From a halophilic archaeon SHRA6 (lineage in GTDB: Archaea; Halobacteriota; Halobacteria; Halobacteriales; Haloferacaceae), in the NCBI GenBank assembly GCA_005239175.1, contig ML241294.1:507275-571274 (forward strand): a DNA stretch of 64,000 bases, in the 5' to 3' direction. The position numbers and the translations under genes are program-made. Positions within the stretch are counted from its first letter, which is position 1. The number at the start of each line of letters is the position of its first letter. Shown in pieces: positions 52,393 through 55,815 of the stretch. A model generated the notes under the pieces. That model did not search any database. It worked only from the letters and a program-made list of their open reading frames with translations, and had not been told where the DNA came from.

Positions 52393-53256
52393 TCAGGCCT
52401 GCGGATCAATCGATTCGAGTGTCGCGACCGCCTCATCGGTGAGTGTCAGCTGCGAGGCCGCAACGTTCGATTCGAGGTGTTCGACGCTCGAGGTTCCCGG
52501 AATCGGGAGGATCACATCCGAGTGTTCGAGCAGCCACGCGAGTGCGACCTGCCGGCGGGAGGCGTCGTGGCGATCGGCGATCGAATCGAGCGGCCCGGCG
52601 ACGCCCTCGTCATCGACGGTGTACATTGGCCCCCACGGAATGAACCCGACGCCGTGGGATTCACACGCCGCCAGCACGTCCTCGTCCTCGCGATACCCCA
52701 CGTTGTAGCGGTTCTGGACGGTCGCGATGTCGACGATCTCCATCGCGGTTTCGAGCTGTTCGACGGTGACGTTCGAGAGCCCAACATGATCGATCTGGCC
52801 GGCGTCTTTCATTTCCGCGAACGCGTGGACCGACGCCTCGAAGTCAACGTCAGGATCCGGGCGGTGGAACTGGTAGAGGTCGATCGACTCGGCGCCGAGG
52901 CGATCGAGACTACACAGGACCTGGTTGTGCAAGAACTTGGGATCTCCATGGGGAAGCCAGTCACCGTTTCGGTGTCTGCAGAGTCCGGCTTTCGAGGCCA
53001 CGACCGCCTCTCCGTCGGCTAATTCCTCCCCAAGGAGGCGTTCGCTCACGCCCGGGCCGTAGGAGTCGGCGGTGTCGATGAAATCCACGCCGAGGTCGAT
53101 CGCCCGACGAATCACCTGCCTGGCGGCGGCCTCGTTGGCGGGTCGGCCGATGATATCTGGGCCGGTGAGCCGCATCGCGCCGAACCCCAGCCGGTGGACG
53201 GTCAGTTCGCCGCCGATATCGAACGTATCGCTTGCGTTGATCGTGTGTTCGGCCAT
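52393..53256 (-). CDS. Aldo/keto reductase (first)
   Basis: 287 residues from ATG 53256. NADPH-dependent TIM barrel: GFGAMRLTGPD, DFIDTADSYGPGVSE with catalytic Asp/Tyr, SKAG Lys, QFHRPDPD His, NRYNVGYRED, and the C-terminal ILPIPGTSSVEHLESN. Probably reduces a short-chain aldehyde or ketone; substrate unknown. It is the left neighbour of the transposon; a second AKR of a different subgroup lies on the right side. Confidence 0.9.
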   Translation of the reverse strand: MAEHTINASDTFDIGGELTVHRLGFGAMRLTGPDIIGRPANEAAARQVIRRAIDLGVDFIDTADSYGPGVSERLLGEELADGEAVVASKAGLCRHRNGDWLPHGDPKFLHNQVLCSLDRLGAESIDLYQFHRPDPDVDFEASVHAFAEMKDAGQIDHVGLSNVTVEQLETAMEIVDIATVQNRYNVGYREDEDVLAACESHGVGFIPWGPMYTVDDEGVAGPLDSIADRHDASRRQVALAWLLEHSDVILPIPGTSSVEHLESNVAASQLTLTDEAVATLESIDPQA

Positions 53257-53367
53257 CACCAGCAGGTACGCGAGCACCGGGCAAAAATCGGGAGGGTTTC
53301 GTAACTGCTACAAAAAACGGGCGTGATTGGGAGTGTTCGGTAACAAACCTAACCCAAACATTTATTT

Positions 53368-53391
53368 TATATTGAGTATAAATCCAATATA
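53368..53391. promoter_or_regulatory. Inverted repeat directly before the DUF2080-like start
   Basis: TATATTG and CAATATA are exact inverse arms separated by 10 bp (agtataaatc), ending at the base before the ATG at 53392. It may be the left-end hairpin of the transposon, or an operator for the AbrB-like ORF it precedes. Confidence 0.55.
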
Positions 53392-53544
53392 ATGGCCGAG
53401 TTCACGTTTGAGGGTCGAGAAGCCCTTGAGAAAGAAGCAAAACCTATTGGCGGTGGTGCACACGTCCTTGTGCCGAAAGACTGGATTGGCGAAAAAGTCG
53501 CAGTCATCCGCCTCGAACAGCAAGAAACTGAAGACGACGACTAA
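53392..53544 (+). CDS. DUF2080-type small protein of transposon (50 aa)
   Basis: 50 residues, MAEFTFEGREALEKEAKPIG then GGAHVLVPKDWIGEKVAVIR, ending in an acidic tail QQETEDDD. The central part has the swapped-hairpin look of AbrB-like DNA-binding modules (short strands around VPKDW). Such ORFs accompany haloarchaeal tnpB genes, labelled DUF2080 transposon-encoded. Seven bases separate it from tnpB. It may control tnpB or bind the element ends; no experiment is known to me. Confidence 0.8.
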   Translation: MAEFTFEGREALEKEAKPIGGGAHVLVPKDWIGEKVAVIRLEQQETEDDD

Positions 53545-53550
53545 CACCGT

Positions 53551-55344
53551 ATGGCGTCCACGCACCTCTCACTCCCAATCCATCTTCAGTTCGAGGAGCG
53601 AGAGCGCCACGTTCGACTAGACACACTCACGGCCAACGTAGCCAACGCTCTCATCGAAAAATACTGGACGCCCGAACACCTCGCCGGGATTGACGACTAC
53701 TCGTATCAAGCGTGGAAATACTTTGACGCGAGCGAAGCGTTCGCAGACGTTGAATTGTACCTCCCATCGCGGTACAAACGGTGTGTGATGCAAAAAGTCG
53801 GTGAAACACTCCGAAGCCACGCCGACAAACGCAAAGCGTTCCAATCCATTCATTCCGTTCTCTCCAACCGAAAGATTCGGAGCATCGAAACCCGGCGAAT
53901 CAAAGAACAACTTTGGAACGCAGAGGAATACATCAAATCAGGGTACGTTGACCTGCTCATCGGCCAACTCAACTCGTACTACGACCGTCACGGGCGATTC
54001 CCCGAGTCATATTTCGATATGCAAAAGTGTCCCACGTACTCGAAAGGCGTTCTTCCGTACTCCGCAGACGACGGGCCAACGAGTGGACAGAGTGTAAAAT
54101 ACGACTACGACGAAGACACGGAAACACTCACAGTCAAACTCAAAACACCGGACATACTTGAACCCGGGTCTCGTGGTGATTGGACGTGGACGAAACACGA
54201 ACTTGAGGGATACAAAGCGTTCCACGAATTGCTCGACCACGGCAGTCTCTCCGCCCCCTCGTTCCACCCCACACAGACCAAAACTGGGGAAGATTACTAC
54301 GAACTCTCGTTCCCTGTCGAAGTCGAACACGCAGAGAAACCAGACGACGTGGAAACCGTCTTAGCAATTGATGGTGGTCTCCGAAAAGACGCGACTGCAG
54401 TCGTCGTGAACGACGATGGAGAGCAACTCTCTGTCCCGTACTTCATCCAGAATACAGAGCGAGAACGGATGCGGAACCTCGCTCGGGAACGCAATCACCT
54501 CAACGCCAAATTAGCATATCTACGGCGAGAAGGACGTGACCACACGGACTCGTTCAAACACGTGCAGGCAGAGTACGAGCGTGTGAACAACAAGATTCGC
54601 CACAAGCGAGAGCAGTTGGTTCACGACGTATCTAACCAGGTTCTTGCTCTTGGGTTGGTGTACGATGTGGATGCGATTGTTCACGAAGACCTGCGGAGCC
54701 TCAGCCCACCTCGTGGCGAAGGGCAACTATCGTGGGAACTTTCGTCGTGGGCACGACGAGAAATCATTTCGAAAATCGAGTACCGAGCAGACATTACCGG
54801 GTTGCACGTGGAGCGAGTGCATCCGGGTAACACAAGTCGTGAGTGTCCTCGATGTGGCTCGACAGGCCACACGACGAAATCACCGGAGCACTCGTTCGAG
54901 GTGTGGTGGGGCGGGCACTTCAGGTGTGACAACACTCGGTGTGGCTTCCAAGCCGACCGTGACTACGTTGGCGCGGTGAACGTCGCTCGCGTGTTCTTCA
55001 GCAGTTCGGCAACGCTGAACCACGATTTCACGTCCTCGTATATCGGGGACGTTGAAATCGTGCCAGCAAGCCGTTCCGCTGGTGAGCAACGCACTGCGTT
55101 GCGATCCTCGTCAGACCGAGATTCTGACGCTGGCCCGCGTCTCACGTTCGGTAACGCTCCCGTAGCGTATCTCGGACAGTCGGAGCAAGAGGTGACTGCT
55201 GGTGGCGGGTCGTGCTTCATAGCGCCCGCTGTCACCCCGACAGAGACGAAAAACAACAGTAGTAACCCTGATTCTGCATCAAGCCCAGCGATGCTTGGCG
55301 TGACCCGTTTGACACGAGTCACTACCAATTGCTACCGAAAATAG
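53551..55344 (+). CDS. tnpB: TnpB RNA-guided nuclease of IS1341-type element
   Basis: 597 residues. RuvC catalytic residues: Asp in LAIDGGLRKDATAV (near 272), Glu in AIVHEDLRSLSPP (near 374), Asp in RDYVGAVNVAR (near 474) after a zinc ribbon with CPRCG (near 434) and C..N..C. N-terminal ~260 residues are the recognition part. The last ~110 residues (after NVARVFF) are not RuvC-like and coincide with the region expected for the omega-RNA. The full nuclease core looks intact. Family known as guided by omega-RNA; target-adjacent motif unknown. Confidence 0.92.
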   Translation: MASTHLSLPIHLQFEERERHVRLDTLTANVANALIEKYWTPEHLAGIDDYSYQAWKYFDASEAFADVELYLPSRYKRCVMQKVGETLRSHADKRKAFQSIHSVLSNRKIRSIETRRIKEQLWNAEEYIKSGYVDLLIGQLNSYYDRHGRFPESYFDMQKCPTYSKGVLPYSADDGPTSGQSVKYDYDEDTETLTVKLKTPDILEPGSRGDWTWTKHELEGYKAFHELLDHGSLSAPSFHPTQTKTGEDYYELSFPVEVEHAEKPDDVETVLAIDGGLRKDATAVVVNDDGEQLSVPYFIQNTERERMRNLARERNHLNAKLAYLRREGRDHTDSFKHVQAEYERVNNKIRHKREQLVHDVSNQVLALGLVYDVDAIVHEDLRSLSPPRGEGQLSWELSSWARREIISKIEYRADITGLHVERVHPGNTSRECPRCGSTGHTTKSPEHSFEVWWGGHFRCDNTRCGFQADRDYVGAVNVARVFFSSSATLNHDFTSSYIGDVEIVPASRSAGEQRTALRSSSDRDSDAGPRLTFGNAPVAYLGQSEQEVTAGGGSCFIAPAVTPTETKNNSSNPDSASSPAMLGVTRLTRVTTNCYRK

Positions 55345-55345
55345 G
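55150..55345 (+). ncRNA. Candidate omega-RNA (right-end RNA) of the TnpB element
   Basis: The 3' end of tnpB has a strong hairpin: GGTGAC (55191-55196) with GTCACC (55231-55236) and inner GCGGG (55205-55209) with CCCGC (55225-55229). Another hairpin is GTGAC-c-CGT...ACG-a-GTCAC at 55300-55322. This is where TnpB guide RNA scaffolds are usually encoded, with the guide following the element end. Boundaries and the guide are inferred, not seen. Confidence 0.45.
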
Positions 55346-55350
55346 AACGG

Positions 55351-55815
55351 TTACTGCGATGGCAATTGGGATGGGTCCTTCTCGTATGCCGCATCGTAGC
55401 GACGGACGATCACGGCGATCCACCACAGCTTCAGTGCTGAGGCGACGATCGACCCGACTGCGGCCCCGATCGGTCGACACACCCAGGCGGCCACGAGCGC
55501 GTACGCGAACGCGACCGCGCCGCCCGCGTTGTAGACATTAGGATAGTCAAGACCGATCGTCCCGTTTCGCTGCTCACGAACCCACCAGCGTTCTGCGAGC
55601 ACTGCGCGGGTCATCCACGCCTCGTGGGATTCCGGCGGCGAAAAGATCACAGGGTTGACAATCGTCCAGACGAGTGCCGCAGTGAGCAGACGGAAGTCTC
55701 GCCGGTAAACCGCGTAGACGATCAGCGGACCGGTCGGCACACGCGTCCAACCGCTTTTGGGATTCGCGTGTCGGGACCAGAGCGTTTCTTCGAGCGATCG
55801 AGCAGTGAAGTTCAT
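55351..55815 (-). CDS. DUF6653-like membrane protein
   Basis: 154 residues from ATG 55815. N-terminus polar (MNFTARSLEETLWSRHANPK), then three to four helices (LLTAALVWTIVNPVIF; NAGGAVAFAYALVAAWVC; AVGSIVASALKLWWIAVIV). The pattern WSRHANPKSGWTRV and NPVIFSPPE is one I associate with haloarchaeal DUF6653 proteins; the label is from memory. Function unknown. It ends 6 bp from the end of tnpB and is on the opposite strand. Confidence 0.65.
   Translation of the reverse strand: MNFTARSLEETLWSRHANPKSGWTRVPTGPLIVYAVYRRDFRLLTAALVWTIVNPVIFSPPESHEAWMTRAVLAERWWVREQRNGTIGLDYPNVYNAGGAVAFAYALVAAWVCRPIGAAVGSIVASALKLWWIAVIVRRYDAAYEKDPSQLPSQ

What the first reader, a model, noticed from the sequence alone, without database searches (positions are those of the whole stretch)
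53330..55345. TnpB element with candidate omega-RNA and a DUF2080-like partner
A complete TnpB with intact RuvC residues has no TnpA, and a 50-residue AbrB-like ORF seven bases upstream. Two clear stem-loops lie in the last 160 bp of tnpB, where an omega-RNA would be. A conserved upstream small protein with TnpB could be a regulator of the guided nuclease, a pairing with little functional description that I know of.
Basis: partly seen in the sequence, partly recalled or inferred. Interest (0 to 1): 0.6.

Follow-up and report, generated by a model that had tools for sequence, protein, structure and literature searches.

The report
IS607-type TnpB element without recombinase
A small jumping-gene relative in a salt-loving archaeon keeps the RNA-guided DNA cutter TnpB and both transposon ends, but where its close kin carry their own transposase it carries a tiny DUF2080 protein that probably works as its switch.

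Summary
The window carries a DUF2080 gene (53392-53544) and an intact 597-aa TnpB (53551-55344) with all RuvC and zinc residues conserved.

Relatives show what it is: an IS607-type element, not IS200/IS605. In the TnpB clade of 41 sequences, 28 have an IS607 serine transposase directly upstream, 12 have DUF2080 there, none has both and one has neither. Both classes share the same left end (GGG(T)-NN-CGTAAC) and right end (GAAAAT..GAACGGT). DUF2080 has therefore replaced the transposase, with interchange on the tree. An empty site in a congener fixes the ends (53298-55351), the GGGT flank and the guide start.

DUF2080 most likely represses its own operon. Across 40 non-redundant DUF2080 promoters a palindrome of varying sequence sits 16 bp before the start codon. 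DUF2080 subtypes move between TnpB subclades together with their promoter. The window's own palindrome is weak, and binding is untested. The element is mobile, presumably through an IS607 transposase in trans (one full copy is in the same genome). TnpB, omega-RNA, IS607 and the DUF2080-TnpB link are known; the swap and operator are the new parts.

The parts
53294..53297 (+). GGGT flank at the left junction (TAM-like, part of the host target; the GG is shared with the right end)
   Evidence: Empty site L093 reads GGGAGGG-TTACTGCG; GGG precedes the left end in 48 of 48 readable left ends
53298..53330 (+). Left end of the element, NN-CGTAACTGCTACAAAAA
   Evidence: Shared by DUF2080-type and serine-transposase-type relatives
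53367..53392 (.). Candidate operator TTATATTG-N10-CAATATAA between TATA-like sequence and start codon (its last base overlaps the A of the ATG)
   Evidence: Weak on its own (p 0.08-0.2; 3 of 8 pairs at centre -16); other DUF2080 promoters show a palindrome centred at -16
53392..53544 (+). DUF2080 family protein, 50 aa, putative DNA-binding autoregulator
   Evidence: NF033496 54.4 bits, PF09853; 73 of 81 DUF2080 loci have a tnpB frame starting within 100 nt downstream
53551..55344 (+). tnpB, RNA-guided nuclease, 597 aa; nuclease part to about residue 483, C-terminal tail 484-597 is mostly the frame read through the RNA region
   Evidence: tail has pLDDT about 20 in a poor model
55059..55351 (+). 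omega-RNA scaffold (8 covarying helices), ending at the right end
55337..55351 (+). Right end GAAAATAGGAACGGT
   Evidence: Same motif in both classes; ACGGT in all 49 of 54 rows where it was read; empty-site junction
55352..55371 (+). Guide region TACTGCGATGGCAATTGGGA (host flank)
   Evidence: GGGT + first 18 guide bases matches the empty site in G199 with 0 mismatches; the own right end differs by one base in the GGGT

Best explanation
This is an IS607-type transposable element that has lost its serine transposase and carries in the same slot a DUF2080 gene in an operon with tnpB and its omega-RNA. Shown by sequence comparison: the swap, the shared ends, the target rule (GGG(T), guide = right flank), the RNA fold and recent movement. 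Inferred: an IS607 transposase from another copy moves it in trans; TnpB loaded with the omega-RNA cuts GGGT-marked empty alleles so that the element is kept or copied back; the right-end CGGT spares the donor copy; and DUF2080, as a small DNA-binding dimer, represses the shared promoter so that the nuclease stays at low dose.
For: Partner exclusivity: of 41 clade members 28 have a serine transposase, 12 DUF2080, 0 both, 1 neither; the transposase is IS607 by an equivalog model (223 vs cut-off 110 bits). Identical ends in both classes. Empty sites for two copies. Mobility: a 99.4%-identical truncated copy lies at a different place in congener G199, where the window's site is empty. RNA fold: 98.5% of cells paired vs 92.0 +- 0.4 shuffled, covariation score 0.305 vs 0.190 +- 0.006, 0 of 500. 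Operator: in 40 non-redundant DUF2080 promoters symmetry peaks at -16 (0.53, mean over centres 0.29, sd 0.07); 170 of 320 pairs vs 103.6 +- 11.1 with arms permuted, 0 of 5000; no such peak in 10 transposase promoters. DUF2080 and TnpB do not co-evolve strictly: L022 DUF2080 is 90% like the window's but its TnpB 91% like L023's; L036 the reverse, and it carries the ATGTATAT palindrome of its DUF2080 subtype. Purifying selection on DUF2080.
Against: The window's own promoter has only 3 of 8 pairs at -16; its palindrome is centred at -12.5 and is not significant alone. The palindrome signal shrinks with stricter thinning (77 of 184 vs 57.0 +- 7.3 at under 60% identity). Operator and DUF2080 are adjacent, so their joint inheritance is also expected from block recombination. 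AbrB kinship is only moderate. Some related elements have no small partner, so DUF2080 is not essential to every TnpB element. No expression, binding or cleavage data.
Confidence: 0.55

Rival explanations
1. DUF2080 is an antitoxin-like protein that binds TnpB (or the loaded complex) and restrains it directly; promoter control is secondary.
For: A DUF2080-domain protein (SpnP2, D146) is listed among validated antitoxins against nuclease toxins in PMC10440598 (passages seen); DUF2080 is almost always next to tnpB (75 of 81 loci).
Against: DUF2080 subtypes are exchanged between TnpB subclades (L022, L036) and pair with TnpBs of several lineages, which argues against a finely matched interface.
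Confidence: 0.2
2. DUF2080 helps transposition: it binds the element ends and recruits or steers a transposase supplied in trans.
For: It stands in the slot of the transposase; the left end holds a conserved palindromic core GTAACWGYTAC.
Against: The same left-end core is present in elements that have their own transposase and no DUF2080, so it need not be a DUF2080 site; DUF2080 also occurs in elements with the unrelated Y1 transposase (20 of 81 loci).
Confidence: 0.12
3. DUF2080 is a passenger carried along by recombination with no role in the element.
For: Related elements do without it.
Against: Low dN/dS, interleaved presence on the tree, fixed position directly before tnpB in 73 of 81 loci within 100 nt.
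Confidence: 0.06
4. The element is an ordinary IS1341/IS605-type tnpB relic, moved by a Y1 transposase.
For: The NCBIfam model TIGR01766 (IS200/IS605 accessory) is hit below its cut-off; DUF2080 is common in Y1 elements.
Against: Ends, flank and closest TnpB relatives are those of IS607-transposase elements; no Y1 gene was found next to any member of the clade.
Confidence: 0.05

Closest known systems
IS607 family (IS607, IS1535, ISC1926)
   Same: TnpB plus, in close relatives, an IS607 serine transposase (NF033518); (G)GG target, GG at the ends, no target duplication (literature passages PMC6188088)
   Different: This copy has no transposase; DUF2080 fills its place
Haloarchaeal IS1341-type tnpB-only elements and PATEs
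   Same: tnpB without tnpA; small copy numbers (PMC3119063 passages)
   Different: Ends are IS607-type, not IS605 near-terminal hairpins; origin and likely helper transposase can be named
OMEGA TnpB with omega-RNA (ISDra2 and kin; haloarchaeal sotRNA RF02656/RF02657)
   Same: RuvC nuclease, RNA at the 3' end of tnpB that runs into the flank
   Different: RNA matches no Rfam family, in the window or in 12 related loci; it lies inside a long C-terminal reading frame
SpnP2/DUF2080 antitoxin of the NetFlax network (PMC10440598)
   Same: DUF2080 domain in a two-gene unit with a nuclease
   Different: There the partner is a toxin of the type-II toxin-antitoxin kind; here it is TnpB

Membership tests
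IS607 family element | IS607 serine transposase gene (MerR-type HTH + resolvase domain) | tested here: not met
   Absent from the window element; present in 28 of 41 clade members and in L002 of the same genome
IS607 family element | GG core at both junctions, (G)GG target, no target duplication | tested here: met
   Empty site and junctions, left flanks; feature taken from PMC6188088 passages
IS607 family element | Ends homologous to transposase-bearing members | tested here: met
OMEGA TnpB nuclease | RuvC catalytic triad and zinc ribbon intact | tested here: met
   30 of 30 sequences identical; PF07282 above cut-off; NF040570 below its cut-off
OMEGA TnpB nuclease | Structured RNA ending at the right end and running into the flank | tested here: met
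   Structure by covariation; the transcript itself is not testable here
OMEGA TnpB nuclease | RNA-guided cleavage at a TAM | not testable with these tools
   Only the sequence correlate (GGGT + guide at the empty site)
Rfam sotRNA RF02656/RF02657 | Covariance-model match | tested here: not met
   No match in the window nor in 12 related loci
AbrB/MazE (PF04014) superfamily | Profile similarity / swapped-hairpin fold | tested here: inconclusive
   hhalign probability 43.8%, score 22.1 vs at most 14.2 in 30 shuffles; no Pfam MazE hit, no AbrB hit in PDB sequences, AF2 pLDDT 59.7
DUF2080 (PF09853 / NF033496) | Score above curated cut-off | tested here: met
   25.8 vs 21.5 and 54.4 vs 22 bits
Type II toxin-antitoxin pair | One protein neutralises the other | not testable with these tools
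   Arrangement only; antitoxin autoregulation would predict the palindrome seen
IS200/IS605 element | Y1 (HUH) transposase or IS605-type ends | tested here: not met
   No Y1 hit beside any clade member; ends are IS607-type

The most novel reading that the evidence does not exclude
DUF2080 with its own palindromic operator is a portable control cassette for RNA-guided nucleases: it plugs in front of tnpB in at least three transposon chassis (IS607-derived, Y1/IS605, transposase-less), holds TnpB and omega-RNA at a low dose, and with TnpB forms an addiction-like retention unit that survives after the element gives up its own transposase and is moved by helpers. In a sister clade a ribbon-helix-helix-like small protein seems to have taken the same slot.
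Probability: 0.35. Interest if true: 0.75.

Novelty: new variant of a known kind. Interest (0 to 1): 0.52.

Why it matters
Haloarchaeal genomes hold many tnpB genes without any transposase; PMC3119063 called this unusual if TnpB were only an accessory protein and suggested stringent copy-number control (passages). This locus offers a concrete answer that can be tested: such elements can be former IS607 elements, moved in trans, with a small regulator in place of the transposase. If DUF2080 represses tnpB, it would be a dedicated transcriptional control of an OMEGA nuclease and a natural off-switch for TnpB; my searches of the held library listed no paper describing one.

Tried and rejected
IS200/IS605 reading: rejected, because ends, flank and relatives are IS607-type. 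Rfam scan of the window at the gathering score and of 53200-55700 at E up to 5: no omega-RNA match. Thermodynamic fold of the window RNA alone: not significant. AlphaFold of DUF2080 (pLDDT 59.7) and of TnpB (41.8): too poor for a fold search, so none was run. PDB profile searches with DUF2080: no hit from 5 sequences, only chance-level hits from 14. Viral contigs: no relative of this TnpB; three DUF2080 loci, not followed. Empty site for the transposase-bearing copy L090: left flank found in G199 but no right match, so not usable. A control stretch -120..-81 of DUF2080 promoters also showed some symmetry (Fisher p 0.001); part of it is probably the palindromic left-end core, but this was not separated. 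A first hhalign run against MazE domains (probability 3.4) used wrongly oriented rows and was replaced. Rows dropped before the 41-row count: duplicates of one place seen in two collections; truncated copies L026/L068, L054, L055; fragments L056 and L086-L089. The number of pairs with a change on both sides (9) equals the shuffle mean (8.6), so that measure gives no support, nor does the number of further pair types (41 vs 41.3); the other three do. Three DUF2080 loci (L112, L183, L185) were left out of the promoter set because a start codon could not be set by rule. PADLOC: TnpB hits Cas12f-type models, DUF2080 none.

Full report
Where it is. The window lies in an unnamed haloarchaeal genome (G000, 3.36 Mb, 5 contigs). 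The nearest genome available, G199, is listed as the same genus; its contig C42 has the same length (163,745) as NZ_SRSG01000037.1 of Halalkalirubrum salinum N1521, so the host is probably a Halalkalirubrum.

The observation. A 50-aa ORF (53392-53544) scores 54.4 bits with NF033496 'DUF2080 family transposase-associated protein' (cut-off 22) and 25.8 with PF09853 (cut-off 21.5). Six bases after its stop starts a 597-aa TnpB. The TnpB hits PF07282 above its cut-off and NF040570 guided_TnpB below its cut-off. The RuvC residues D274, E379 and D469/D471 and the four zinc cysteines are identical in 30 of 30 aligned sequences (which of the aspartates is catalytic is recalled).

What it is. The genome has two further copies of this TnpB at 84% identity, and nine distant TnpBs. 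One copy (L003/L091) has DUF2080 upstream. The other (L002/L090) has instead a 209-aa protein that is an IS607 family transposase by an equivalog model, 223 vs cut-off 110 bits. I collected relatives from named genomes (14 loci) and from 391 genomes of the class (41 with a match at E <= 1e-60). In the clade of 41 non-redundant TnpBs around the window, 28 have the serine transposase directly upstream, 12 have DUF2080, none has both, and one (L028) has neither. No Y1 transposase was found next to any of them. On a TnpB tree of 61 rows the DUF2080 label needs 8 changes, and well-supported branches force at least 5; a transposase-bearing copy (L061) nests among DUF2080 copies, two of them from the same genome. 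The exchange has therefore probably happened more than once; its direction is not resolved in each case.

The ends. Both classes share the left end NN-CGTAACTGYTACAAAA, preceded by GGG in 48 of 48 left ends that could be read (GGGT 40, GGGG 4, GGGC 2, AGGG 2; 6 of 54 rows had no readable left end). Both share the right end GAAAAT..GAACGGT; all 49 of 54 rows in which it was read end in ACGGT. L028, outside that set, ends in ACGGC. In congener G199 the site is empty and reads CGGGAGGG-TTACTGCGATGGC, against window left CGGGAGGGT-TTCGTAAC and right GGAACGGT-TACTGCGATGGC. A second copy, L091, also has an empty site in G199, with one base difference in the flank (GGGAT). This fits the IS607 rule of a GG exchange at a (G)GG target without duplication (PMC6188088, passages). 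The element is thus about 53298-55351. Because the window site is empty in G199, while a copy 99.4% identical over 1109 nt lies at another place there (truncated), the DUF2080 form has moved recently. The transposase that moves it is inferred, not shown.

The RNA. In 35 sequences the stretch from column 20 to the right end (window 55059-55351) holds 8 helices and 45 pairs. Of the cells, 98.5% pair, against 92.0 +- 0.4% after shuffling 3' letters and at most 42.6% when partners are slid. The covariation score is 0.305 vs 0.190 +- 0.006 (0 of 500); 111 cells changed on both sides vs 39.2 +- 5.8. The structure was derived from the same alignment, and the region is also coding, so part of the contrast with slid versions is built in. 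No Rfam family matches, including the known haloarchaeal sotRNA/omega-RNA families (named in PMC12558985, passages). The guide then starts at 55352. GGGT plus the first 18 guide bases occurs once in G199 without mismatch (the empty site) and once in G000 with one mismatch, at the element's own right end, where the first G of GGGT is C. That difference would spare the donor copy; this is inference.

DUF2080. In 145 genomes of the class, 60 have a DUF2080 match. Of 81 DUF2080 loci examined, 75 have a TnpB-like ORF downstream on the same strand, 73 of them within 100 nt; 20 also have a Y1 transposase on the opposite strand; none has a serine transposase. The protein is under purifying selection. 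Immediately before its start codon, many promoters hold a palindrome whose sequence differs between lineages, for example ATGTATAT-cta-ATATACAT, GTTTAAAT-aga-ATTTAAAC, CTATATG-N5-CATATAG, GTATCTACA-t-TGTAGATAC. In 40 promoters less than 75% identical, symmetry peaks at centre -16 (0.53, mean over centres 0.29, sd 0.07): 170 of 320 pairs vs 103.6 +- 11.1 after permuting arms between sequences, 0 of 5000. Ten non-redundant transposase promoters show no such peak. With stricter thinning the excess remains but falls: 111 of 232 vs 73.9 +- 9.3 (under 65% identity) and 77 of 184 vs 57.0 +- 7.3 (under 60%). The window's own promoter is a weak case: 3 of 8 pairs at -16 and an 8-bp palindrome with a 10-bp gap centred at -12.5, p 0.08-0.2. 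Two swaps are telling. L022 has a DUF2080 90% like the window's but a TnpB 91% like L023's. L036 has a DUF2080 90% like L023's, with that subtype's palindrome, but a TnpB 85% like the window's. DUF2080 thus travels with its promoter rather than with a TnpB subclade.

How it probably works. The operon is transcribed from the promoter before DUF2080. DUF2080 binds the palindrome and holds expression down. TnpB takes up the RNA made from the 3' part of its own message and scans for GGGT followed by the flank sequence, that is, the empty allele. Cutting it favours return or retention of the element, as shown for other TnpB elements (recalled). The swap, ends, RNA fold and mobility are supported by calls above; repression, RNA production, cleavage and trans mobilisation are inferred.

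Kin of DUF2080. AbrB/MazE similarity is suggested by hhalign (probability 43.8%, score 22.1, best of 30 column shuffles 14.2) but not by Pfam, PDB profile or structure prediction. One paper lists a DUF2080-domain protein as a validated antitoxin of a nuclease toxin (PMC10440598, passages only). In a distant sister clade (20 rows: 11 with DUF2080, 9 without), three of the seven loci without DUF2080 whose upstream DNA was inspected have another small ORF resembling a ribbon-helix-helix protein in the same slot (L059, L070, L085); the resemblance is by eye and its fold was not confirmed (no fitting Pfam hit). Six of the 11 distant DUF2080 loci show the same left end.

What is new. Searches of the held paper library for DUF2080 (1 paper), TnpB with AbrB (1 paper, listing only, on another topic), 'transposase-associated protein' with TnpB (0) and regulator terms (listings only) brought up no description of this pairing or of DUF2080 replacing an IS607 transposase; most subscription papers are not held. 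The TnpB, the IS607 chassis and the DUF2080 label are known; the replacement, the shared ends, the unlisted RNA fold and the operator candidate are the additions. I rate it a new variant of a known kind.

Noticed in passing
window 55077-55127; also L038, L042, L063, L044, L065, L046, L024: A 51-nt in-frame insertion inside the RNA/C-terminal tail, flanked by GCTGG repeats and holding its own hairpin; present in some relatives (twice as long in L024) and absent in others, in both DUF2080- and transposase-bearing elements.
   Followed up: partly
L059, L070, L085 (also L207-L209): Small ribbon-helix-helix-like ORF (STNVNIELEQEDFEFLKEYKDEMGWTWEGLL...) upstream of tnpB, where others have DUF2080; L059 and L070 show the IS607-type left end; distant relatives of it elsewhere are not next to tnpB.
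   Followed up: partly
window 53300-53310: The left-end core GTAACWGYTAC is itself palindromic and common to both element classes; it may be the transposase site.
   Followed up: no
L013 (G000:C1:515482): A Y1/IS200-type transposase divergent from DUF2080 and a 425-aa TnpB in the same genome: apparently a complete IS605-type element with the same partner.
   Followed up: partly
L189: A protein with two tandem DUF2080-like units and no tnpB downstream.
   Followed up: no
L267, L268, L269: DUF2080 relatives in viral contigs.
   Followed up: no
L026/L068 in G199: Copy of the window element 99.4% identical over 1109 nt at a different site, with the rest of tnpB lost.
   Followed up: partly
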